Under the pieces are notes generated by a model. The model had not been told where the DNA came from, made no database searches, and saw only the letters and a list, made by a program, of their open reading frames with translations. Below, in pieces: positions 1 to 14,821 of a stretch of DNA of 64,000 nt; position 1 is the first letter of the stretch; every line of letters starts with the position of its first letter. The DNA comes from Sabellastarte sp. h YS-2021 (taxonomy: Eukaryota > Annelida > Polychaeta > Sabellida > Sabellidae): positions 94,710,537-94,774,536 of the forward strand of contig OZ024936.1 of NCBI GenBank assembly GCA_964017235.1, read 5' to 3'. Both the position numbers and the translations under genes were made by a program.

Positions 1-496
1 TGATGAGCTGGATACTACTACCGAGGAAAAACCTCTGGTGCGCAATATTCAGAATAAATCAAGACCACCAACAACCAAACCACAGCAGGAGCACTCATCT
101 GTTGAAACAGAAATGCGGGAGCTGAAAACCATGTTTGGAAAAATGTTGAACTTGTTACAAAATCCACCAAACCAGGGTTATAGATCGCCACCCAGAAACC
201 AAGGTTGTTTTGAATGCGGATCTCCAAGTCATTTTGTTAAACAGTGTCCTAGACGACGAGGATCACCAAATTCAAGCCCTAGGAGGAGTGATGATCGCAA
301 TTGGAGATCGCGAGGCGACAGTCAATGTGCGTCTAATCCAAACTGGAGGCAGAAAGATCAGGGGTCAAGGTCGCCACCATCCCAGTCCTGGAGGTCATGT
401 GAGCAGGATTACTGGTCACCACCACCAGTGACTAGTAGGCAGAAGCTATCAGGAGTGGAAGATTGGGACACCATTGCAGGGGCAGCCTGGAGATAG
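1..496 (+). pseudogene. gag C-terminal fragment, upstream gypsy copy
   Basis: This is the C-terminal part of a retrotransposon nucleocapsid, cut by the window edge. It contains one CCHC zinc knuckle (C-X2-C-X4-H-X4-C, CFECGSPSHFVKQC, about 211-252) followed by an Arg/Ser/Pro-rich basic tail expected to bind RNA. It ends at a TAG (494-496). The same stretch recurs at 3192-3687 with a handful of substitutions. The preceding gag sequence is not visible, so whether this copy once had a full gag is unknown. Confidence 0.75.
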
Positions 497-775
497 TCAA
501 GTTAAGTTTAATTTAAACTATTAGACCGGGACGGGCGAATTCCCAATGATCTGGCCCAACATAATAGTTTAGATTCATTAGTTAAGACAGTTACCAAGCA
601 TGTTCATAGATGCAGTAAAGGAGTCAGTTTTGCATGTCAACAATTGTGTCAAGAGAACCAAAATAATTTTAGTGCCTTAATTCTGTGTTCATTAAATGGA
701 ATACAGGTGAATGCCTTATTAGATACCGGTTCAGAAGTAACTGTAGTAAACTTTGATGTGTATAACAAATTGATT

Positions 776-788
776 CCAAAACCTTGTT
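776..788 (+). repeat. Target-site duplication, left arm, SINE 1
   Basis: CCAAAACCTTGTT occurs here and again at 1029-1041, flanking the SINE. The uninterrupted copy of the element (around 3967-3979) has the sequence once, which gives a direct pre-insertion reference. Confidence 0.9.
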
Positions 789-1028
789 AGGGGCCACGGT
801 GGGAGAGTGGTAACACTCTCGCCTCCCACCTCTGCGGCCGGGGTTTGATCCCCATCATGGCCTTAAGTGGGAAAGCTGGTAGTTGCTTGCCGTTGGTCGG
901 CAGTTTACAGTACAGAACCCTAGCGAACTATATGTACTGGTTTCCTCTGCCCTTCCAACTACCCGTCGTGATATGACCTGTACATTGTTGAAAGCGACGT
1001 AAAACCCCAAATAAACAAAATAAACAAA
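789..1028 (+). mobile_element. tRNA-headed SINE, full length (copy 1)
   Basis: A 240-bp insertion. The head resembles a tRNA and carries a pol III A box (GGGAGAGTGG; TGGCAGAGTGG in other copies) and a B box (GGTTTGATCCC; GGTTCGATTCC in the 39-kb copy). The body contains AAGTGGGAAAGCTGGTAG and the 3' end reads GAAAGCGACGTAAAACCCC followed by an A/T-rich tail. Perfect 13-bp target-site duplications flank it. Related copies lie near 12.1, 14.6, 25.2, 34.8, 35.5, 39.0, 49.8 and 55.1 kb. Confidence 0.92.
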
Positions 1029-1270
1029 CCAAAACCTTGTTTGAAAGAAAAGGTTAGGTTAAATGGTATTTGTAGAGAAGTAGATGTTGATGCTTGGTTA
1101 CTTGAAGGAATTGAAATAACTTTTGGACAAACAAAAAACTTTTGGAATGTTTATGTAGCACAGATAGCTGAACCCTTTATCATTGGGATTAATTTTTTAT
1201 GCCATTTTGGAGCAAAATTAGATTTTCGGAACTACATATTCACATTGAATGATGGAAGAAAGGGATTCAC

Positions 1271-1866
1271 TTGTTCAAAACAGAATCAGGAGATAGTTTT
1301 GAAGTTTGCCCTGTAACTATAGATAAGAAGACTGTTATACCTCCTAATAGTGTAGTTAGAACTTTAGTTAAGTCTTCTTTACTAAATGAAACCTATGCTA
1401 TACATTCAGTCAACAGTCAGGGGTTGCTGATACCAAACACTGTGGTCACCGGTGGAGGCACACATGTTCCGGTACAACTGGTGAATGATCAGAACAGGTA
1501 TGTTAGATTGAAGAAAGGTCATGTCATTGGGCATGCTATTCAATGTGATGTGGTGCCAGAGGTTATAGACACCGATTTGTCATTCAAAGTGAGGTCAATA
1601 ACAGATAAGCCACCATCCCAACAAGTAGATGAATTACCAGAACATTTGTCAGGTTTGTTCAGTCGTTCTGTTAACAACTTAGACAATTCAGAACAGAAAC
1701 AGTTAAAGACACTTTTGTTAGAATTTCAACATATTTTCTCTAAAGGTAGTGGAGATTTGGGTTGTTTTTCTGAAATTAAACATAAAATTAATACCGGAGA
1801 TGAAAGACCTGTAAAACAACCAATGCGTAGGACACCAATCGGTTTTGAAAAGGAGGAGGAAGAGAA
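1271..1866 (+). pseudogene. pol N-terminal fragment, upstream gypsy copy
   Basis: This segment lies between protease and RT. It matches 4209-4804 without a difference that I can see. The homology stops at 1866, inside a run of acidic codons before the RT core, and continues in frame into gag sequence of the downstream copy. The open frame therefore runs 1271-2923 as an accidental pol-gag fusion. No RT motifs are present in this copy. Confidence 0.8.
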
Positions 1867-3687
1867 TAAAGTGAGAATGTTGTCACTCAATGTAAAGACA
1901 AATGCTGTGGTACGTAAGATCAACCAAGGTGCAACTGAACTCAAGCAGAAGTTTGGCGTAACTTGCCCGTTTGAGTCAGAGGTAGATGAACCAGAGTGGA
2001 CGGGTTTGGATTTGAGCTTGTGTCAGACCCACAACCCTGATCGACATCTGTTAGATTCCCCTGTTCCACAGATACTCCCCAGGTATCATTACCCCCAGTC
2101 TACCCCTTTCCCTTCCAAGTTTGCAGAACAAAAACCACAGTCTCCCCCTTTCCCACCTAAGTCTGTGCATTATGGACAACCGTCGCAGCTTAGAGGTGCG
2201 CCACATGACCAACCTTGTGACCCTCAACCTAAGCCCATGACACAGTCAAGACTTCCACAGTCATATAGCAGAAAGTCACGGGAATTGTATCATCTACCCG
2301 CCTTTCGCAACACTTCACAGCAGGAAAAAAGGGATACAATTCAGCCACGACAATCAGTTGGTCATAATCAGCCTCAAGTTGTCATGCCCCAACTCAGTCC
2401 AGTTAAAAGGGACTTTGAAACCATGATGAGAGAGGTGATAAAAGAGGAACTGAAGAAGACCATGGAGCCCTTGAGGAGTGCAAATCATTCATCAAGGAGT
2501 GCCCGAAGGAGAAGAAATAGGTCTTACAAATACAGCAATTCATCAAATTCAACAAACTCAGATGATGAAAATAGCTTTAGACCGAATACCAGGAATAACC
2601 GTTCCATTGCTAAATTTTCCAGGATGCAAGTTCCAAAGATGTCCTTCTCTGGTGAAGGTTGGCGAGGATTCATCTCCCAGTTTGAGACCGTAGCTGACCA
2701 TTGCAGATGGTCTGAGCAAGAGAAATTGGACAACTTCTCCATGTGTTTGAAGAAAGATGCGGCAGAGTATTATAGCGTCTTGCTAGAGCGAAACAAAATA
2801 AATTTCTTGGAAATCAAAAAGAGGTTCAAGGGGTTCTTTGACAAAACTGAACCTGCGTCTGCCATTCGTTGGGACATCCTCAACATTGAACAAAGAGAGG
2901 ATGAAGCACTTGAAAATATTTAGCCCGACTTCAAGGAATGATCATGAGAGCATACCCAGGTTCCAGCCCAAGTGAACAAGATAACACCCTGTTCATTGAG
3001 GTCTTCCTGAAGGGATGCCGGGAGAAAGGAGCTGTACTTGCCATTTGTGACAAGAAGCCGACAAGCCTGGAGGAAGCCTACAAGTTTGTGCAATCAGCTT
3101 CACAGTACAGAAGAGCAGTGTTGGGCAAGAAAGGTCAAAACAAGAAGGTGCATCTCATCCAAACTGCTGGCAAGTCAAGTAACAGCAACAGTGATGAGCT
3201 GGATACTACTACGGAGGAAAAACCTCTGGTGCGCAATATTCAGAATAAATCAAGACCACCAACAACCAAACCACAGCAGGAGCACTCATCTGTTGAAACA
3301 GAAATGCGGGAGCTGAAAACCATGTTTGGAAAAATGTTGAACTTGTTACAAAATCCACCAAACCAGGGTTATAGATCGCCACCCAGAAACCAAGGTTGTT
3401 TTGAATGCGGATCTCCAAGTCATTTTGTTAAACAGTGTCCTAGACGACGAGGATCACCAAATTCAAGCCCTAGGAGGAGTGATGATCGCAATTGGAGATC
3501 GCGAGGCGACAGTCAATGTGCGTCTATTCCAAACTGGAGGCAGAAAGATCAGGGGTCAAGGTCGCCACCATCCCAGTCCTGGAGGTCATGTGAGCAGGAT
3601 TACTGGTCACCACCACCAGCGACTAGTAGGCAGAAGCTATCAGGAGTGGAAGATCGGGACACCACTGCAGGGGCAGCCTGGAGATAG
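1867..3687 (+). pseudogene. gag of the main gypsy copy, frameshifted
   Basis: Structural protein of the element. The likely initiator is the ATG at 1877. A Pro/Gln-rich N-terminal region (about 2040-2400) is followed by a basic Arg-rich patch, then a capsid-like region with the usual FSGEGWRGFISQFE and LFLEIKK-type blocks near 2640-2830. The frame is broken at 2921-2923 (TAG) and reopens one frame away at 2938, where the matching sequence continues without a gap, so a small indel has split the gene. The C-terminal half ends with a CCHC zinc knuckle (CFECGSPSHFVKQC, about 3402-3443) and an Arg/Ser-rich tail, with the stop at 3685-3687. The extent agrees with gypsy gag proteins of roughly 600 residues. 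Confidence 0.8.
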
Positions 3688-3834
3688 TCAAGTTAAGTTT
3701 AATTTAAACTATTAGACCAGGACGGGCGAATTCCCAATGATCTGGCCCAACATAATAGTTTAGATTCATTAGTTAAGACAGTTACCAAGCATGTTCATAG
3801 ATGCAGTAAAGGAGTCAGTTTTGCATGTCAACAA

Positions 3835-4254
3835 TTGTGTCAAGAGAACCAAAATAATTTGAGTGCCTTAATTCCGTGTTCATTAAATGGAATACAGGTG
3901 AATGCCTTATTAGATACCGGTTCAGAAGTAACTGTAGTAAACTTTGATGTGTATAACAAATTGATTCCAAAACCTTGTTTGAAAGAAAAGGTTAGGTTAA
4001 ATGGTATTTGTAGAGAAGTAGATGTTGATGCTTGGTTACTTGAAGGAATTGAAATAACTTTTGGACAAACAAAAAACTTTTGGAATGTTTATGTAGCACA
4101 GATAGCTGAACCCTTTATCATTGGGATTAATTTTTTATGCCATTTTGGAGCAAAATTAGATTTTCGGAACTACATATTCACATTGAATGATGGAAGAAAG
4201 GGATTCACTTGTTCAAAACAGAATCAGGAGATAGTTTTGAAGTTTGCCCTGTAA
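3835..4254 (+). CDS. Retropepsin-like aspartic protease (pro)
   Basis: Processes the gag-pol polyprotein. The catalytic DTG is at 3913-3921 in the context LLDTGSEVTVVN, and the flap/hydrophobic region and IIGINFL block follow at about 4114-4134. The frame is open with no ATG near its left end, so it is probably part of a longer polyprotein; gag-pro is interrupted by stops around 3688-3720. It overlaps the pol frame by about 45 nt and the shift is -1. I see no standard X-XXY-YYZ slippery heptamer in the overlap (4209-4254). Both copies share the arrangement, so it predates the duplication. Confidence 0.75.
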   Translation: MCQENQNNLSALIPCSLNGIQVNALLDTGSEVTVVNFDVYNKLIPKPCLKEKVRLNGICREVDVDAWLLEGIEITFGQTKNFWNVYVAQIAEPFIIGINFLCHFGAKLDFRNYIFTLNDGRKGFTCSKQNQEIVLKFAL

Positions 4255-7200
4255 CTATAGATAAGAAGACTGTTATACCTCCTAATAGTGTAGTTAGAAC
4301 TTTAGTTAAGTCTTCTTTACTAAATGAAACCTATGCTATACATTCAGTCAACAGTCAGGGGTTGCTGATACCAAACACTGTGGTCACCGGTGGAGGCACA
4401 CATGTTCCGGTACAACTGGTGAATGATCAGAACAGGTATGTTAGATTGAAGAAAGGTCATGTCATTGGGCATGCTATTCAATGTGATGTGGTGCCAGAGG
4501 TTATAGACACCGATTTGTCATTCAAAGTGAGGTCAATAACAGATAAGCCACCATCCCAACAAGTAGATGAATTACCAGAACATTTGTCAGGTTTGTTCAG
4601 TCGTTCTGTTAACAACTTAGACAATTCAGAACAGAAACAGTTAAAGACACTTTTGTTAGAATTTCAACATATTTTCTCTAAAGGTAGTGGAGATTTGGGT
4701 TGTTTTTCTGAAATTAAACATAAAATTAATACCGGAGATGAAAGACCTGTAAAACAACCAATGCGTAGGACACCAATCGGTTTTGAAAAGGAGGAGGAAG
4801 AGAACTTGAAATTAATGTTAGAAATAGGAGTTATTTCCGAATTATCCTCAGACTGGGCATCAGCTCCAGTGTTAGTGCGGAAAAAAGATGGGAGTGTGAG
4901 ATATTGCATTGATTTTCGATGTGTTAATGATAAAACGGTTAAGGACTTATTTCCATTGCCGTCAATATCTCAATGTTTAGACCAACTTTCTGGAAACATG
5001 TATTTCTCCACATTAGACATGGCTTCCGGATACTGGCAGATAGAAATTGATGAACAGGATAGGCATAAGACAGCATTTATTACCAAGTTTGGGTTGTTTG
5101 AACACCGAAGAATGGCCTTAGGTTTATGCAACGCCCCAGCTACTTTTCAAAGAGTAATCAAACTGGTCCTGAGGGGATTAACCTGGGATAAAATACTGGC
5201 CTATCTTGATGATGTAATTGTGCTGGGTAAAAATTTTCAAGATCACATAAAAAATCTCCGCACTACTTTTGAAAGGTTTGCGAAATATAACCTTAAGCTT
5301 AAACCTAAGAAATGTGTCTTGTTCCAGACTGAAACCATGTTTCTGGGTAGGATAGTCAGCTCAGAGGGAGTAGGTGTAGATCCAAACAAGATTGAGAAAG
5401 TCAAAAACTGACCTATTCCAAAATCAGTAAAAGATGTTGAGAAATTCTTGGGTTTTCTAAATTACCACAGGGAACACATCAGGGATTATGCTAAGATAGC
5501 GTCAGTGTTGTATGAGTTGACAGGTAGCAAAGCCATTTTCAACTGGCAGGGGAAGCATCAAGAAGCTTTCGAGGATTTGATTGGAAAGTTGACAACAGCA
5601 CCAGTTCTAGCTTATCCAAATTCAGATGACATGTTTATTTTAGATACAGACCATTCTATTGGAGCTGTACTTTCCCAAGTTCAAGATGGTGCAGAGCGAG
5701 TCATAAGCTATGGGAGTTTTGTGCTTACACCTGAGCAGAGGAAGTACTGTGTAACTAGGAAGGAGTTGTTAGCTGTTGTGAGCTTTACTAGACAGTATAG
5801 ACACTATCTGCTTGGTAGGAAATTCCTAGTAAGGACAGATCACAATAGTTTAACTTGGCTCTTAAGATTCAAGTATATAGAAGGTCAACTGGCTAGGTGG
5901 CTAGATGAACTAAGTCAATTTGATATGACTGTAATCCATCGTCCTGGAGTGAGGCACGGTAATGCAGATGCATTGTCACGTGTAACAGATGATATACCAT
6001 TTTGTGATTGTTACAGAGCTGCTTCCGATCCGAATTCACTACCTTGTGCTGGTTGTAAGTATTGTCTCAGAGCACACAATCAGTGGTCCAGATTCAGTGA
6101 GGAAGTTGATGACGTTGTTCCTCTCCTGGTTAGGACAGTAAACTTAGCGAAACCGGTGAGTAGATCAGTACCTTGGATACCTGGTTACACTACAAGTGAG
6201 ATGAGTGAGATTCAATCTTCTGATCCATGTTTAGGTAAACTAATTGCATGGATATTGAGTGAGAAGGAGCCTGAACAAAGGGAGTTATACCTGAGTAGTC
6301 CAGCCGTTAAACATTTTTATATTTGTAGGAAGCAATTACTTTATAAAGATGGGCTGTTGTATTATAAGTGGAAAGAAGAAGCTGGTGACAGATTATTACT
6401 CATGGTTGCTGATAAGCTTAAACAAGAGGTTATGTCCCTCAATCATGACATACCACTTTCTGGTCATATGGGAATAGCTAAAACCTTAGCTAGAGTGAAG
6501 CAATCTTTTATGTGGTATAATCTGAGGAAGGATGTGGAACTGTTTGTGAAGTATTGTTCTGAGTGTAATAAGAAGGCAAATGTTAAGGCAAAAGCTGTGT
6601 TAGGCCAATTTCATGCAGGTTCGCCATTGGAGGGGGTTCATATTGATATACTAGGACCATTTACGCCAAGTTCCAAAGGTAATCAGTATGTACTTATGAT
6701 CGTGGACCAGTTTACCAAATGGTTGGAATGTTTTCCTCTTCCACATCAATCAGCAGAAGAAGTAGCCAGATGTGTAGTTGAAGGTTTCATTTCCAGATTT
6801 GGATGTCCATTGGAGATACACACTGATCAAGGTAAAAACTTTGATGGTAACCTGTTTGCTTCTGTTTGTGAGTTATTGCACATTGTCAAGAAGAGGACGA
6901 CACCATGCAGACCTTGTTCAAATGGTCAAGTGAAAAGGTATAACCGAACATTGCTACAGTTAATCAGATGTCTTTTACAAGGTAATCATCATACTTGGGA
7001 TGAACATCTTCCACAACTAGCTGGAGCAATAAGGTTCACCATTAATCGAAATACTGGTTTTACTCCAAATTTGATGATGCTAGGTCGTGAGGTTATCCTG
7101 CCTGTTAATCTAATGATCGGCATTACAGAAGAAGGTGAGAATAAAACCCCTGCCAAGTATGTATTAAAGTTGAAAACTATTTTGAATAAAGTTCATACTT

Positions 7201-7757
7201 TAGCAAGAGAAAATCTAGTGTCAACACAAATGAGACAGAAGAAAGACTATGACCTGAGACTGAAGGAGAACACATATGAAGTAGGTGACTTGGTTTATTT
7301 ACTAGATTCTGCCTGGAAGATTGGACAAAGTAGCAAATTGCAACAGATATGGAAGGGCCCAATGTTGGTAACTAAAGTGGTAACACCAATCCTTTTTGAG
7401 GTTACGGGAAAGAAGCCAGTCATCATACATCATGATAGGTTAAAACCCTGTTGTGATCGAAACATCCCCATATGGTTGCGTCGTAAGAGGAATCAACTAT
7501 TAGGTAATCAATCCGAACTTTGTGAGAACACTTCAATTTGCCAGGAGGATGATGATCTGAATCTTAGTCACTTATTTGAAGTGAACTGTCAGGATACAGC
7601 TGATTCAGGTATGAAAGCTAATGATTCTTTAGTTTTGGAAGAAGAGTTAAAAGTAAATACAACAGATGAAGGTAACCAAGAAGTAAACAAACCCTCAGTA
7701 ACGAGAGCCGGCCGGGAAAGCAGGAGGCCCAGACACCTGGTAGATTACTATAGTTAA
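4209..7757 (+). pseudogene. pol: reverse transcriptase, RNase H, integrase (one nonsense codon)
   Basis: Replication enzymes of the element. RT blocks run from about 4850 (APVLVRKKDG) through FSTLDMASGYWQ (about 5010) to the catalytic YLDD at 5202-5213. A TGA at 5409-5411 interrupts the frame at a position where gypsy pols normally have Trp before a Pro; the same frame then stays open to 7757. RNase H follows (about 5630-5970, with TDHNSL and NADALSR). Integrase has the HHCC zinc module (GHMG...YCSEC, about 6450-6570), catalytic Asp at about 6645 and HTDQG near 6820, but the third catalytic residue, normally Glu, is Lys (AAA 6933-6935). A GPY/F-like end with HHDRLKP is near 7428. The product would be inactive for integration. 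Confidence 0.88.
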
Positions 7758-7815: not shown

Positions 7816-7873
7816 TACTAATCAACTATAGCTCTCACATTTTGGGACTTACACAGTTGTTTCCTTCTTGTAG
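7816..7873 (+). promoter_or_regulatory. Putative 3' splice acceptor before the extra ORF
   Basis: A branch-point-like TACTAAT (7816-7822) is followed by a pyrimidine tract TTGTTTCCTTCTTGTAG (7857-7873), and the ATG of the extra ORF begins at the very next base. This fits expression from a spliced subgenomic RNA, as for env-position genes of retroviruses and some gypsy elements. The matching donor would lie in the 5' leader outside the window. Confidence 0.5.
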
Positions 7874-9835
7874 ATGGATCGAGGTAGGTCATCCTACCGA
7901 GGGAGGAGATCCCGAGACAGGGATCGCGAGAGGAGGCCAGAGTACTACGTAGGAGTCCCACCACCGATTTCTATGGGAGACCTGGTCATCAGAGAGGCGG
8001 CCGAGACAGGAGTCGTCCAAGCTACAACCAGGCAGGAGGGTTACGTCATTACAATGATAGACCTCGCTCTCAAAGGCCATATGACCATGACGGCTATGGC
8101 AGAAGGCATGAACGCAGAAGTCATGACACTGATTTCGCTTCACATGACCGCTACAGACGTGATCCTCAACAATGCACCACCAAGGAAGAGGATGAATCCG
8201 TCACAATTATACTGATGGATATATATAGTGAACTCAGGGTAGGAGTCATAAGGGCAAGTGTCAATCACCCTGAAAACCGCAGGAGGCCTTTCAATAAGGG
8301 GATTCTACTCCAGCGATGTTTAGAGGATTTACGCGGTCTTTCTACGTGGCGACGTACAAGCCGGCCGGAGCCATCTCCTGCGTTAGGGGCACCCCCGCAG
8401 GAACCAAGTACCAGTGGAGTCCCTACAGCAAGTACCGCAAGTGTGTCTGCTCCAAAGCCCTCTACGAGCGGAACTCAAAGGGTTGACAAGTCGGGCACGT
8501 CCCCCGGTGACAAACAGAGATCACCGGAAGAAACCTCTGCTGGATCTCAGTCAACTCTGCAGAGACAGCAGGAAAGTACCTCTGGTGTGTCTCAATCAAC
8601 TCCACAAAGACCACGGGGAAAATATCCCCAGTGGTGCTCAGGAATCCAAGATAGATGATAGGCCGCAGAAATCACCGGGCGAGTCAACTGAGCAAAAGTC
8701 ATCTTCAGTAAATAGAAAACAGGAGTGGGTCAAAGTTACATGCAAAAAGCCTGTCAAGCAAGCAAAGTATGTAACCTCATATGCTTACAGAAAAGATATA
8801 AAGAAGGATAGACCCAGCAGGGAAAGTGAGCCTGTCGAGCCGTTCAAGAAACGAAGGAGGGTAACCCCTAAGATGAAGTGTTTCATGACTGGTTGCGACT
8901 CCATGAACAAACATATGAAAAAGCATGTGATTGGTAAACATCTGCCCACTGAGGCCTACAGTAAAACCGGGGATTTACCCCTGGGTTTTCGCATGCGAAT
9001 CTTAGAAGACTTGCTGAACAAAATAGCTCACCACCTGGGTTGTGAGGATTTGAAGGCGTTACTCCAGAAGGTGTTGTCCCTGAAATTCTATCCAACCACG
9101 GATAAAACTTATGAGGTGACAGAGCCTGATATTGAAATGATGAACCAGTTCCACCATTGGTTGTATTCAGAAAACCTGCCAAGGACACCATCAATCAGTC
9201 CACCTAATCTTGTAGCCTCTCTGGTACAGTGGAGAGCCTTGGCTCATCTCATCAATTGTATAGGAGAGAGCAAGTTCAATGTCAAACGTGTAAAGATAGA
9301 CAAGGGGCATGTTACAAAGGACATTGTACCAGCCAGCGTAGACAATACGGACGTTCAAGTAGAATTGGCCAGTGACCAGAATACAGATCAGGCAAAATCA
9401 AAGGAAAAGTCAAGTGAAAAACAGACCCACAAGAAGTCTGTTAAACAGAGTCTGGACAAAGCGAACACAGCTGAGTCTGCACCGAGATTCAGGCCACTAT
9501 CTGTTGTTATCGCTGAATCATTAGAACAAGCTTCAGCAGGGAAGGTTCCACAGGGAAAAGCCTCATTGGAGAAGAAGGTAAAAGAAGTTGAAAGTAGTGA
9601 GTTTGTGGTTGTGGACAGTCTATCTCCGGAAAGGGGGGACGAGATGGAAATAGATTGGGAAGAGGTTACACCAGGAAGAGAGGAAAGGCAAGGAGAAATT
9701 GCAAGGTCTGTGGAGTCTGAAGCGATGGAAACAAACAAACCAGTGGAGACAAAGGAGTCAACCTCTTCTGCCACTAGGAGTTATGCCGCAGTTGTACAAT
9801 CGGGTCCAGCAGTGCCAGCAAAGGGGAAAAGATGA
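7874..9835 (+). pseudogene. Extra element ORF, N-terminal part: Arg-rich region, zinc-finger-like motif, charged linker
   Basis: It starts at the ATG directly after the splice acceptor with an arginine-rich sequence (MDRGRSSYRGRRSRDRDRE), suggesting RNA binding. Coding potential changes frame near 7950 (from the 7874 frame to the 8215 frame) and back near 8620, at GGGGAAAA-type runs. The middle is Ser/Thr/Gln/Pro-rich low complexity (8400-8640). A C2H2-like motif, CFMTGCDSMNKHMKKH followed by VIGKH, lies at about 8880-8945. A conserved-looking helical block containing LVASLVQWRALAHLIN is near 9207-9255. The rest is Lys/Glu/Ser-rich and probably disordered. The frame ends at TGA 9833-9835, overlapping an ATG at 9832. 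The N-terminal architecture resembles what I recall of long TATDN2-type proteins; that comparison is inference. Confidence 0.65.
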
Positions 9836-10744
9836 AACCATCACCACTTAGTATTCCTTATCCCAAAGAGGAAAGGGAATTGAGGTTAGTGCGTTTGGTG
9901 AGGAATTCACAGAGGATACCGTTTGTGGATTCTCACTTCCACCTTGATCGTGTGAAGCAGCAAAGTAGAATGGAGGATCTAGAGGAGATACTGGCTAACG
10001 GGCCAATCCCACAAACCCCAATGAAATTGGAAGCTGCAATAGCCAAAAAGGCGGGATTTGTCCAAGGATCGACGGTTGTTTTTTACTTTCGGGGTGCATC
10101 CAAAACGTGCTCACAAAGTAACCCCTGAAGAGATGAAAGCGGTGAAAGAAGTTATTTTGAAGGAACCAAAGTGTGTGGGAATTGGTGAGATGGGTTACGA
10201 CCTAACTGATGGTTGTAGTGTACATCTTGACAAGCAAATGAAGGTGTTCAAAGAGCAGCTGAGACATTACGCCAGCAAGGAGTTATGGTCAACTGTCATG
10301 GTTATTCACTGCCGAGACAGTGTGGACTCCAAGAAAGCCACAGATTTATGCTTGGACACCATGGGAAGTCAGTTATTCTCTAAACACCGTGGTTCTTATA
10401 GAATTCATGTGCATTGCTTCAACGGGGGAATGAAAGAAAAGGACACCTGGTTGGCTCAATACCCAACAGCCATGTTTGGATTCACTGGACTGTTGCTAGG
10501 TAGTGAGTGTCATCCCGAGCTAGAAGAAGTGGTACGATCTCTGGAGCCAACCAAGATTCTCCTGGAGTCAGATTCTCCCCATTTACTCCCCCCAGCATTT
10601 AAAACCGAGAAGTTCAACACTCCTTATGGAATCGATGAAGTCACTCGTAGGATAGCTTTTTTGCGTGGGAAAACTGTCAGGGAGATTTTAGATCTCAGCT
10701 CCTTCAACGCGAAAAGGGTCTATGGAAAAATACAGATTCTGTAG
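9832..10744 (+). pseudogene. TatD-family metal-dependent nuclease domain (TATDN2-like)
   Basis: TatD proteins are TIM-barrel metal-dependent hydrolases acting as DNases; TATDN2 has been linked to RNA/R-loop cleavage. The usual ligands can be seen in order: HFH in FVDSHFHLD (about 9925-9950), the FGVHP strand (about 10090), Glu in GIGEMGYD (about 10180), His in VIHCRD (about 10300), His in VHCFNGG (about 10410) and Asp in LLESDSPHL (about 10560). The domain lies in two frames, 9832-10128 and 10058-10744, with a shift around 10045-10060. No stop interrupts the second part. It lies between integrase and the putative LTR, in env position. It could instead be a neighbouring host gene or pseudogene, but the short 117-nt spacing and the splice acceptor favour element membership. 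Confidence 0.75.
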
Positions 10745-10789: not shown

Positions 10790-11183
10790 TAGAAGATGGG
10801 CCGGGAGGTGAAGACACTGCCATAAGCGTGACAAGTGCCGTCAATGTGTTTGTCATGATACCAAGCTTCTCGTTGACGGAGGAGAGTGTAGTGAATCGCG
10901 GGCGGAGATGATCTCGCCGTTAGAATAGCCACTTGCAAACGGCAATATAAAAGGTGAAGGTCGTCCTGACAACGAGAGATCCAATACCAAGTATCGAGAG
11001 TAGTAGTTTGAAATGCCGCCATTTTACAAAGACATTGTAGTTAGAAGAAATATTACAGACAGATAGTTGTGTAGAAAGGAAATATATAAAGAGAAAGACA
11101 TTTATAAAGGACGTTTGTATCATCAGTGTACCACCAAGTGTCCAGAGAAGTGGGATCCTGCAAACAGTGACTGGTGAGTTACA
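10790..11183 (+). promoter_or_regulatory. Putative 3' LTR with TATA box
   Basis: Follows a purine-rich stretch after the last ORF. Contains a TATA-like AATATAAAAGG (about 10942-10952), a YY1-like GCCGCCATTTT (11015-11025) and, close to the right end, a good splice donor context ACTG/GTGAGT (about 11168-11177). The proposed end TTACA at 11183 is a guess from the CA rule; an alternative end is at the CAAACA near 11165. Without the 5' LTR neither boundary nor target-site duplication can be confirmed. Confidence 0.35.
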
Positions 11184-11404
11184 ATACTATTTAAATAATC
11201 TTCTCATTCAACATTTAAATTATAACTGATAGACATTTGATTATATGGCAATGAAATCTGTGTGTATGCTCTCTTGCACACAAGTTGGTAAATGTTTATC
11301 TGACTGAATTCCTCCATGATTAGGGCCAGTTCATAGTGGCTTGGCTGAACACTTAACATGATAATCCTCTGTCATTGTACCCTAAAACATTCTTTTTGAC
11401 TGCC
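11184..11404. other. Unassigned spacer
   Basis: AT-rich; no gene or repeat recognised. Confidence 0.5.
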
Positions 11405-12071
11405 ACAGGGATTGGTTTGGTGTTGATGGCACTGTGTCGAGGTGGATCAAATCCTATCTTAAACAACACAAAAAGAAGGTTAAATTGTGTAATATCTTTT
11501 TGGATGCCTTCTCACTACCCTATGGTGTACCCAAGGGCTCTGTCCTGGGTCCCCTCCTTTTCACCCTTTACACCACCCCCTTTAGTAACATTATTTCCAG
11601 TTTCAATGTCACCCACCATCTGTATGCTGATGACATCCAAGTATATCTAGAACTTGACCATAGGAAATTTGATTCCAGTTTTGCTGAGCTCACTGAGTGT
11701 CTTACTTGTGTTCAAAAGTGGATGGATGGTGTGAAACTGAAACTCAACCCAGAGAAAACAGAATTCATGATCATTGGTGATAGACAAGCCAGAGAGTCCC
11801 TCATACAAAAATTTCCGACCTAGCTTCTTAGAAATTCTATCTGCCCTGCCGATGTAGTTAAGAACCTAGGTATTATTTTTGACTCTGGAAACACTTTCAC
11901 AAGTCATATAACTAAGGTTTGCCATGCCTGCTACTATCACCTCAATGAACAAAAATGCATCCACAATTTCCTCAGTGTAGAGACTACAGCCCTGCTTAAA
12001 AACTCAATGTTTAGGAGTCAGATTGACTACTGCAATTCCCTACTCTATGGTGTAAATAAAAACACTGTAGA
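11405..12071 (+). pseudogene. LINE reverse-transcriptase fragment (CR1/L2/Jockey-like)
   Basis: One frame reads through RT blocks: DGTVSRWIKSYL (about 11425), VPKGSVLGPLLF (about 11530), the catalytic YADD (about 11620) and LKLNPEKTEF (about 11745), then after a TAG at 11821-11823 continues in the same frame through VKNLGIIFDS and QIDYCNSLLYGV (about 12018-12053). These blocks are standard for LINE RT thumb and post-RT regions. There is no 5' end or endonuclease; the 3' side is cut by a SINE. A dead fragment. Confidence 0.85.
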
Positions 12072-12072
12072 T

Positions 12073-12299
12073 TTTATTTATTTATTTGGGGTTTTACGTT
12101 GCTTTCAACACTGTACAGGTCATGTCACGACGGGTAGTTTTATGGGCAGAGGAAACCAGTACATACAGTTGGTCAACCCTCTGTACTGTAATTTGCTGAT
12201 CAACGGCAAGCAATTATCAGCTTTCCCACTTGAGGTCGGGCCGGAAACTCCGATCTCACAGGTGGGAGGCAAGAGTGTTACCACTCTGCCACCGTGGGA
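12073..12299 (-). mobile_element. tRNA-headed SINE (copy 2, minus orientation)
   Basis: Reads on the minus strand from the head (GGTGGCAGAGTGG, right end) to the tail (TAAAACCCCAAATAAATAAAT, left end). It interrupts the LINE RT fragment, so it is younger than that LINE. I did not find a convincing target-site duplication. Confidence 0.85.
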
Positions 12300-14606: not shown

Positions 14607-14622
14607 TTAATGATCTATGGCT

Positions 14623-14821
14623 CGCCTCTCACCTCTGAGGCCGGGGTTCTATTCCCGGCATGGCCTCAAGTGGGAAAGCTGGTAGTTGCTTGCCGTTGGT
14701 CGGTAGTTTACAGAACCCTAACGAACTGTATGTACTGGTTTCCTCTGCCCTTCCAACTACCCGTCATGATATGACCTGTACACTGTTGAAAGCGACGTAA
14801 AACCCCAAATAAATGAATGAA
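14623..14821 (+). mobile_element. tRNA-headed SINE, 5' truncated (copy 3)
   Basis: Begins inside the tRNA-like head and ends in CCCCAAATAAATGAATGAA. Flanked by a perfect 16-bp target-site duplication TTAATGATCTATGGCT at 14607-14622 and 14822-14837. The 5' truncation with intact TSD indicates target-primed insertion. Confidence 0.9.

What the first reader, a model, noticed from the sequence alone, without database searches (positions are those of the whole stretch)
7874..10744. Gypsy retroelement carrying a zinc-finger + TatD nuclease ORF in env position
Between integrase and a putative 3' LTR lies an extra ORF whose C-terminal domain shows all TatD metal ligands (HFH, E in GIGEMG, two His, D in SDSP). 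Gypsy elements usually have nothing, or an env, there. A captured TATDN2-like nuclease could act on RNA:DNA hybrids or cDNA during replication, or against host or rival elements. Seen: motifs and order. Known: TatD fold and TATDN2 activity. Inferred: element membership and role.
Basis: partly seen in the sequence, partly recalled or inferred. Interest (0 to 1): 0.82.

Follow-up and report, generated by a model that had tools for sequence, protein, structure and literature searches.

The report
Retrotransposons carrying a TatD nuclease gene
A group of virus-like jumping genes in this probable animal genome carries, in the slot where related viruses keep their envelope gene, a gene for a DNA/RNA-cutting enzyme of the TatD family, which evolution has kept intact and which is probably made from its own spliced message.

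Summary
The window copy is a broken member of a Ty3/gypsy LTR-retrotransposon family. Its 5' LTR lies 3.7 kb left of the window, its 3' LTR at 10887-11184. Here ORF3 (7874-10744) is split over several frames, but other copies in the same 1.79 Gb genome carry it open (965-966 aa), three of them inside LTR pairs 99-100% identical.

Eight subfamilies (TatD 39-68% identical) share the order integrase-ORF3; gag was seen in three. The six TatD metal ligands are invariant in 8 of 8. The TatD domain shows dN/dS of 0.05-0.06 between two diverged family-A lineages. In 5 of 6 subfamilies the best acceptor-like site in about 4.7 kb is at the ORF3 start, and a top or tied-top donor-like site sits at the LTR end in three of three tested, so ORF3 is probably made from an env-style spliced mRNA.

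ORF3 is a class II (HxH) TatD behind an SR/RG-rich N-terminus, a C2H2-like finger and a helical 'HWR' module. Its role is inferred: most likely processing of the element's own nucleic acids, possibly attack on host silencing RNAs. Eight literature searches listed no such element.

The parts
1..1894 (+). First copy of an internal duplication: 3' part of gag (1-513) and protease/early RT part of pol (512-1894), interrupted by a SINE-like insert (about 789-1028)
   Evidence: tblastn of gag/pol; 1029-1866 identical to 3967-4804 and 2-788 99% identical to 3193-3979
1844..3704 (+). gag, second (main) copy, frame-broken; other copies have Gag frames of 839-875 aa
   Evidence: tblastn; Gag frames in other copies. 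CCHC read from the sequence; Pfam gave no match on the 249-aa gag piece
3703..7757 (+). pol: protease (DTGS motif read, not scanned), reverse transcriptase, RNase H, integrase
   Evidence: Pfam RVT_1, RT_RNaseH, Integrase_H2C2, rve; tblastn pol 1-1357
7860..7873 (+). splice-acceptor-like tract TTTCCTTCTTGTAG directly before the ORF3 ATG
   Evidence: the corresponding site ranks first in subfamilies B, D, E, F, G and second in A
7874..10744 (+). ORF3, env position; frame-broken here, 965-aa open frame in copies C6a, C8, C6b
8870..8950 (+). C2H2-like finger (C-x4-C-x9-H-x4-H) of ORF3
   Evidence: read from the translation; C, C, H, H kept in A, B, D, F and Y51, but the last H is Y in the X67 copy; no Pfam match
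8955..9280 (+). helical 'HWR/QWR' module of ORF3
   Evidence: aligned in subfamilies A, B, D, F and present in unnamed relatives; confident helical domain in the model of relative P0119
9922..10741 (+). TatD nuclease domain, class II (HxH); in this copy split between two frames
   Evidence: Pfam E=1.1e-35 on 10058-10741; ligands invariant in 8 of 8 subfamilies
10878..10886 (+). polypurine tract GGAGGAGAG at the 3' LTR
   Evidence: a purine run also borders the 3' LTR in copies C1b, C4, C2a
10887..11184 (+). 3' LTR, TG-start, with donor-like CTG|GTGAGT near its 3' end (GTGAGT at 11174)
   Evidence: 92% to the C1b LTR; partner 5' LTR at window -3733..-3436 (L035), 97.7%

Best explanation
This is a clade of Ty3/gypsy LTR-retrotransposons (about 11.6 kb in family-A copy C6a) with a third gene in the env position. 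Shown by sequence in families A, B and D: LTR, PBS, gag, pol, ORF3, purine tract, LTR. In five further subfamilies integrase followed by ORF3 is shown. ORF3 has an SR/RG-rich N-terminus, a C2H2-like finger, a helical HWR module and a C-terminal class II TatD metal nuclease domain, whose ligands are conserved across eight subfamilies and which is under purifying selection. Strongly suggested: ORF3 is made from a spliced subgenomic mRNA whose donor lies at the 3' end of the 5' LTR and whose acceptor abuts the ORF3 ATG, as retroviruses make Env. Inferred: the N-terminal part binds RNA or other nucleic acid and the TatD domain trims or cuts the element's own reverse-transcription intermediates (3' ends, RNA:DNA hybrids, abasic sites), raising the yield of integrable cDNA. 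Estimates by step: element membership 0.97; catalytically active nuclease 0.85; spliced expression 0.85; own-replication role rather than another target 0.45. The confidence given is for the whole chain.
For: LTR pairs with TG start, purine tract and 4-bp TSDs. TSDs match in 6 of 8 copies examined (C1b, C4, C2a; C6a; B and D) and differ by one base in C8 and the window copy. LTR identity: 100% C1b, 99.7% C4, 94.3% C2a; 99.7% C6a, 99.4% C8; 99.05% B, 100% D over 201 bases, 97.7% window. 36 of the 40 LTR hits scored lie near a TatD copy; of 29 TatD hits at 75% identity or more, 16 have LTRs on both sides. Integrase upstream of ORF3 in 14 of 17 non-family-A copies checked, covering seven subfamilies. 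H,H,E,H,H,D invariant in 8 of 8. dN/dS of TatD 0.05-0.07 between the two diverged TatD versions of family A. The acceptor at the ORF3 start ranks first of 367-442 AG sites in B, D, E, F, G and second of 542 in A; the LTR-end donor ranks first in A and B and ties for first in D, in 1.0-1.7 kb scanned. Barrel of relative P0119 predicted at pLDDT mostly above 90 and matched to solved TatDs.
Against: No experiment, no transcript, no protein. Splice weights were approximate and recalled. Pol relatives lacking ORF3 were not searched because the tool did not complete, so 'always present' is not shown. For 10 of 29 TatD hits no LTR and for 3 only the 3' LTR was found, and 4 of 40 LTR hits have no TatD in range (40 of 83 LTR candidates scored). 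Three of 17 copies show no integrase next to ORF3. Recently diverged family-A pairs have higher TatD ratios (0.27-0.70, from very few changes). The low ratio comes from a stretch with its own recombination history (pol dS between the same copies is 0.02-0.06). The own-replication role rests only on what TatD enzymes do elsewhere.
Confidence: 0.45

Rival explanations
1. ORF3 is a counter-defence nuclease: it degrades host small RNAs (piRNA/siRNA) or silencing-linked R-loops in the germ line, keeping the element transcribed. The same anatomy applies; only the target differs.
For: Separate, probably spliced expression rather than fusion to Pol suits a factor that acts outside the particle. SR/RG-rich N-terminus. 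E. coli TatD acts on ssDNA and RNA 3' ends, and human TATDN2 is reported as an RNA 3' exonuclease and endonuclease (passages of PMC10085689 and PMC12709183). ORF3's TatD diverges faster than integrase: 39-68% against 76-90% identity.
Against: No target evidence. Fast divergence may be plain weak constraint outside the catalytic core. Between the two diverged family-A versions the TatD domain is under purifying, not diversifying, selection.
Confidence: 0.27
2. ORF3 is a passenger: a host TatD gene transduced once and carried without benefit, or kept only for RNA structure with an inactive domain.
For: The window copy is broken and several family-A TatD copies hold stops. The family could be swept along by retrotransposition.
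Against: All six metal ligands are kept in eight subfamilies and the splice acceptor in six tested; dN/dS is 0.05-0.07 between diverged versions. A passenger would not keep these.
Confidence: 0.05
3. ORF3 is a host gene family that lies beside or inside Gypsy elements by chance or by assembly error.
For: A tandem array on C11 with about 5.4-kb spacing carries RNase H-IN-ORF3 (one unit read), and the window copy shows a suspicious internal duplication.
Against: LTR pairs enclose ORF3 at many unlinked sites. The order IN then ORF3 recurs in eight subfamilies. ORF3 is one open frame in intact copies.
Confidence: 0.02
4. ORF3 attacks competing elements or gives superinfection exclusion, acting on cDNA of rivals.
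For: Family A carries two diverged TatD versions and two LTR versions on near-identical gag-pol, which could reflect conflict between families.
Against: The same pattern arises from ordinary template switching during reverse transcription; no specificity data.
Confidence: 0.08

Closest known systems
Ty3/gypsy (Metaviridae) elements with env, e.g. Drosophila gypsy-type errantiviruses (recalled)
   Same: LTR, gag, pol with RT-RH-IN order, third ORF after integrase, probable spliced mRNA for it, 4-bp TSD
   Different: The third ORF is a TatD nuclease with finger and SR/RG region; no envelope family matched it in Pfam
TatD nuclease family, class II (TATDN2/TATDN3, YcfH, YjjV)
   Same: HxH, GxGE, HC, HxHC and LE(T/S)DSP motifs; barrel fold in the model of a relative; best solved match S. 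aureus YcfH-type TatD
   Different: Encoded by a retrotransposon, about 280 aa at the end of a roughly 820-1040 aa protein; no Pfam match was found for its finger and helical module, which was not searched alone against solved structures
Bivalve proteins annotated 'putative deoxyribonuclease TATDN2' / 'TatD-like' or hypothetical (Mercenaria P0076, Ruditapes P0053, Mactra P0066, P0092)
   Same: HxH TatD; P0076 and P0092 also carry the PxN...HWR module upstream; grouped apart from the bacterial TatDs, 96/100
   Different: About 28-33% identical to ORF3 of family A; whether these are transposon ORFs or host genes was not tested
Mollusc Gypsy clades of PMC6238403 (passages read)
   Same: Ty3/gypsy elements of animals; that study reports 21 Gypsy clades in molluscs
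   Different: 'additional ORF', 'third ORF' and 'nuclease' occur 0 times in its main text; our clade was not placed in its tree

Membership tests
Ty3/gypsy LTR retrotransposon | RT-RNase H-integrase order in pol | tested here: met
   Pfam RVT_1, then RT_RNaseH, Integrase_H2C2, rve in order
Ty3/gypsy LTR retrotransposon | Matching LTRs with TG start, PBS, PPT and target-site duplication around the unit | tested here: met
   TSD exact in 6 of 8 copies; TGGTACCAG next to the 5' LTR in copies of families A, B, D. A match to tRNA-Leu(UAA) is recalled, not tested
Ty3/gypsy LTR retrotransposon | Placement in an RT/IN tree with reference Gypsy clades | not tested
   No reference set at hand
Errantivirus / env-bearing gypsy | Third ORF is a membrane fusion envelope | tested here: not met
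   ORF3 is SR/RG-finger-TatD; only TatD passes a Pfam cut-off in the four ORF3s scanned
Errantivirus / env-bearing gypsy | Third ORF from a spliced subgenomic RNA | tested here: inconclusive
   Strong donor and acceptor motifs, no transcript data
TatD nuclease | Pfam TatD_DNase above cut-off and all metal ligands | tested here: met
   123.7-142.4 bits against a cut-off of 27; ligands invariant 8 of 8
TatD nuclease | Metal-dependent nuclease activity | not testable with these tools
   Needs a purified protein
TATDN2 orthologue | HxH class II motif plus extended N-terminal region | tested here: met
   Definition from PMC10085689 passages; sequences. HxH is shared with TATDN3, so this alone does not separate the two
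TATDN2 orthologue | Groups with vertebrate TATDN2 in a tree | not tested
   No vertebrate TATDN2 sequence was at hand; the tree holds ORF3s, unnamed, bivalve, nematode and bacterial relatives

The most novel reading that the evidence does not exclude
A finger-HWR-TatD nuclease is a recurrent mobile-element gene of animals that takes the env slot of a large Gypsy clade, expressed by splicing and kept for replication or for defeating host silencing. Many 'TATDN2' annotations in mollusc genomes (perhaps also the TATDN2 drawn inside the giant squid Hox cluster, PMC6962438) are then ORFs of such elements rather than host repair genes.
Probability: 0.4. Interest if true: 0.82.

Novelty: new variant of a known kind. 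Interest (0 to 1): 0.72.

Why it matters
If active, it would be a retrotransposon-encoded TatD nuclease made as a separate protein from the env position; none was listed in the eight literature searches run here. It makes testable whether reverse-transcribing elements recruit host-type repair or RNA-processing nucleases, and what they cut. It also warns that 'TATDN2' gene counts in invertebrate genomes may be inflated by transposons.

Tried and rejected
Rejected: chance or assembly adjacency (LTRs with TSDs at unlinked loci); an env protein; a host gene with introns (ORF3 is a single open frame in copies of A, B, D, E, F, G).

Led nowhere: viral-contig scans with P0001 and alignment A3, 0 relatives confirmed in each. 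The genome-contig scan kept 80 of 554 relatives, which read as ordinary bacterial or archaeal TatDs from their record titles. The first homologue search gave 4 hits without names. The model of P0001 was poor, mean pLDDT 44. The dN/dS script failed at the ORF3 of C2a and did not reach the window, so these are only. The first IN/TatD correlation kept only 4 of 6 lineages (E and G were lost to a motif in my script) and was uninformative, 8 of 24 permutations. With 8 lineages r=0.54, 479 of 40320 permutations as high; this rests partly on the one close pair A-X67, and for X67 and Y51 the integrase and TatD come from different copies of the subfamily. The genome-wide integrase search and a search with relative P0119 did not complete.

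Literature: searches (1 paper; 14; 13; 0) asked for TatD with retrotransposon, reverse transcriptase plus integrase, or LTR retrotransposon, and all results were listed; some searches listed 15 of 4807, 30 of 69, 12 of 4985 and 10 of 64. Passages only were read of PMC6962438, PMC10085689, PMC12709183, PMC9254389 (its 'TatD' is a guide-RNA name), PMC5408686 and PMC6238403; all others were seen only in listings.

Full report
What is there. The window lies in a 1.79 Gb genome of unnamed species (G000, contig C14). The nearest named relatives of the TatD domain are bivalve entries at about 28-33% identity, so an animal host is likely but not shown. The region holds a Ty3/gypsy element on the + strand. 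Pfam finds RT, RNase H, integrase zinc-binding and integrase core domains, then TatD_DNase at 10058-10741. The unit is bounded by a 302-bp LTR type. The 3' copy is at 10887-11184. The 5' copy is left of the window at -3733 to -3436 (L035). The pair is 97.7% identical, and the 4-bp flanks differ by one base, CTAG/CTAT.

The window copy is decayed. Gag and ORF3 are frame-broken. A gag-to-RT segment is present twice: 1029-1866 is identical to 3967-4804, and 2-788 is 99% identical to 3193-3979; the first copy contains a SINE-like insert. The HFH motif and the other TatD ligands are in different frames here.

Other copies. TatD from the window finds 151 matches in the same genome, 150 of 721 candidates scored. 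Ten family-A copies were fetched. All 11 (with the window) have the LTR at +829 or +830 from the TatD query start. Copies C6a and C8 carry Gag frames of 839 and 875 aa, a Pol frame of 1357 aa and ORF3 of 965 aa, inside LTR pairs 99.7% and 99.4% identical. C6a spans about 11.6 kb with TSD CTAT/CTAT; the C8 flanks differ by one base. C1b, C4 and C2a have LTR pairs 100, 99.7 and 94.3% identical with ATAC, ATAT and ATAC duplications; C1b and C4 are shorter in pol. A genome search with one LTR scored 40 of 83 candidates. 36 of 40 lie near one of 29 TatD hits of at least 75% identity. Of those 29, 16 have LTRs on both sides, 3 only the 3' LTR, and 10 none found.

Subfamilies. Eight TatD lineages were sampled: A, X67, Y51, B47, D44, E, F, G. 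Besides family A, 17 copies were checked for an upstream pol; 14 have integrase directly upstream of ORF3. The three others are C3:122.8M, where gag-protease is followed by ORF3 (rest of pol missing); C20:23.8M, where a 908-aa antisense ORF that reads like a LINE (not scanned) lies before ORF3; and C11:96.2M, with no pol in 3.6 kb. In B and D both LTRs were found, 99.05% and 100% identical, with ATAC and ATAT duplications, the same TGGTACCAG PBS and gag matches. Gag was not looked for in X67, Y51, E, F, G. Integrase identity between subfamilies is 76-90% and TatD identity 39-68%, correlated at r=0.54, 479 of 40320 permutations as high; for X67 and Y51 integrase and TatD come from different copies.

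Selection. All six ligands (H, H, E, H, H, D) are invariant in 8 of 8 lineages. Family A carries two TatD versions. Between them dN is 0.022-0.033 and dS 0.39-0.47, ratio 0.05-0.07. Recently diverged pairs give higher ratios, 0.27-0.70, from very few changes. For C6a against C20 the ratios are gag 0.36, protease 0.18, RT 0.27, RNase H-integrase 0.20, pol tail 0.40, ORF3 N-terminus 0.36, finger-HWR 0.19, linker 0.29, TatD 0.057. In that pair pol dS is 0.02-0.06 and gag 0.07, but TatD dS is 0.39. So near-identical gag-pol carries different TatD versions. LTR versions differ too (about 81-83% identical) and do not always follow the TatD version: C3 has a TatD 99.4% identical to C6a but an 83% LTR, and the window has the other TatD with a 92% LTR. 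This points to repeated recombination, as from template switching. Within B, dN 0.006 and dS 0.085. Between subfamilies dS could not be estimated, it is saturated.

Expression. In B, D, E, F and G the acceptor at the ORF3 start is the best of 367-442 AG sites in about 4.7 kb; in A it is second of 542 in 6 kb. In A, B, E, F and G the AG directly abuts the ATG; in D it lies 8 bases before it. The LTR-end donor (C/T)TG|GTGAGT ranks first in A and B and ties for first in D, whose LTR end is partly repeated (1.0-1.7 kb scanned). The weights were approximate and recalled. This anatomy is the retroviral env arrangement, but without transcripts it remains a strong suggestion.

The protein. ORF3 is about 820-1040 aa: SR/RG-rich N-terminus, a 'SVNHPxNRRRPFDK' stretch in A and Y51, a C2H2-like finger, a helical HWR module, a variable linker and TatD. 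The finger's C, C, H, H are kept in A, B, D, F and Y51, but in the X67 copy read the last His is Tyr. Only TatD passes a Pfam cut-off. Relatives at about 30% identity with the HWR-TatD layout occur among unnamed entries and in bivalve entries, one of them named 'putative deoxyribonuclease TATDN2 [Mercenaria mercenaria]'. In a 51-row, midpoint-rooted tree the ORF3s form one clade (100/99) together with P0001, P0002 and P0012, and this side is separate from the bacterial group (96/100); one row on the ORF3 side, P0049, is of unknown origin and may be bacterial. A model of relative P0119 (mean pLDDT 88) matches solved TatDs (best E 6.5e-12). Its N-terminal helical module is confidently predicted but was not searched alone. 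Among viral models one giant-virus protein matched at E<=0.001.

How it most likely works. The element makes Gag and Pol from full-length RNA and ORF3 from a spliced RNA (suggested). The N-terminus, finger and HWR module bring a metal-dependent TatD nuclease to nucleic acid (inferred). From TatD biochemistry (3'-5' exonuclease on ssDNA and RNA, AP endonuclease; PMC10085689 passages; TATDN2 as an RNase resolving R-loops, PMC12709183 passages) the first choice is processing of the element's own reverse-transcription intermediates. The second choice is attack on host silencing RNAs. Nothing here decides between them.

Novelty. Eight answered literature searches listed no report of TatD in a retroelement (four of them were capped lists). 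Subscription papers and Repbase were not searchable. It is a known kind of element with a third gene not found reported, hence a new variant of a known kind.

Noticed in passing
window 2-1866 and 3193-4804: Gag-to-RT segment present twice, 99-100% identical, the first copy with a SINE-like insert at about 789-1028; could be two haplotypes assembled in tandem or a real duplication.
   Followed up: partly
window about 795-1028, 12072-12297, 14621-14821: Three copies of a short SINE-like repeat in both orientations, 82-96% alike; the tRNA-like look is recalled, ARAGORN found no tRNA.
   Followed up: no
window 11375-11823: Fragments that read like a non-LTR reverse transcriptase just downstream of the 3' LTR; motif recalled, not scanned.
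   Followed up: no
L013/L014 (C6a), L017/L018 (C20), L023/L024 (C3), window: Near-identical gag-pol combined with different TatD and LTR versions, in more than one combination: repeated recombination in family A.
   Followed up: partly
G000:C11:99803988-99831555: Six TatD matches at about 5.4-kb spacing on one strand; the one unit read (L132) holds RNase H-integrase-ORF3.
   Followed up: partly
L030: A 908-aa antisense ORF that reads like a LINE lies directly upstream of ORF3; not scanned.
   Followed up: no
L039: The 3' 71 bases of the D-subfamily LTR, with the donor-like site, are repeated after the 5' LTR next to a second PBS-like stretch.
   Followed up: no
P0061, P0087, P0091: TatD proteins named from Thiodiazotropha MAGs; P0087 and P0091 carry the HWR module, and P0061 and P0091 fall in the same larger tree group as bivalve entries; possibly clam DNA in bacterial bins.
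   Followed up: no
L021 (Gag N-terminus): The Gag N-terminus looks like a helix-hairpin-helix (ComEA-like) stretch; resemblance recalled, not tested.
   Followed up: no
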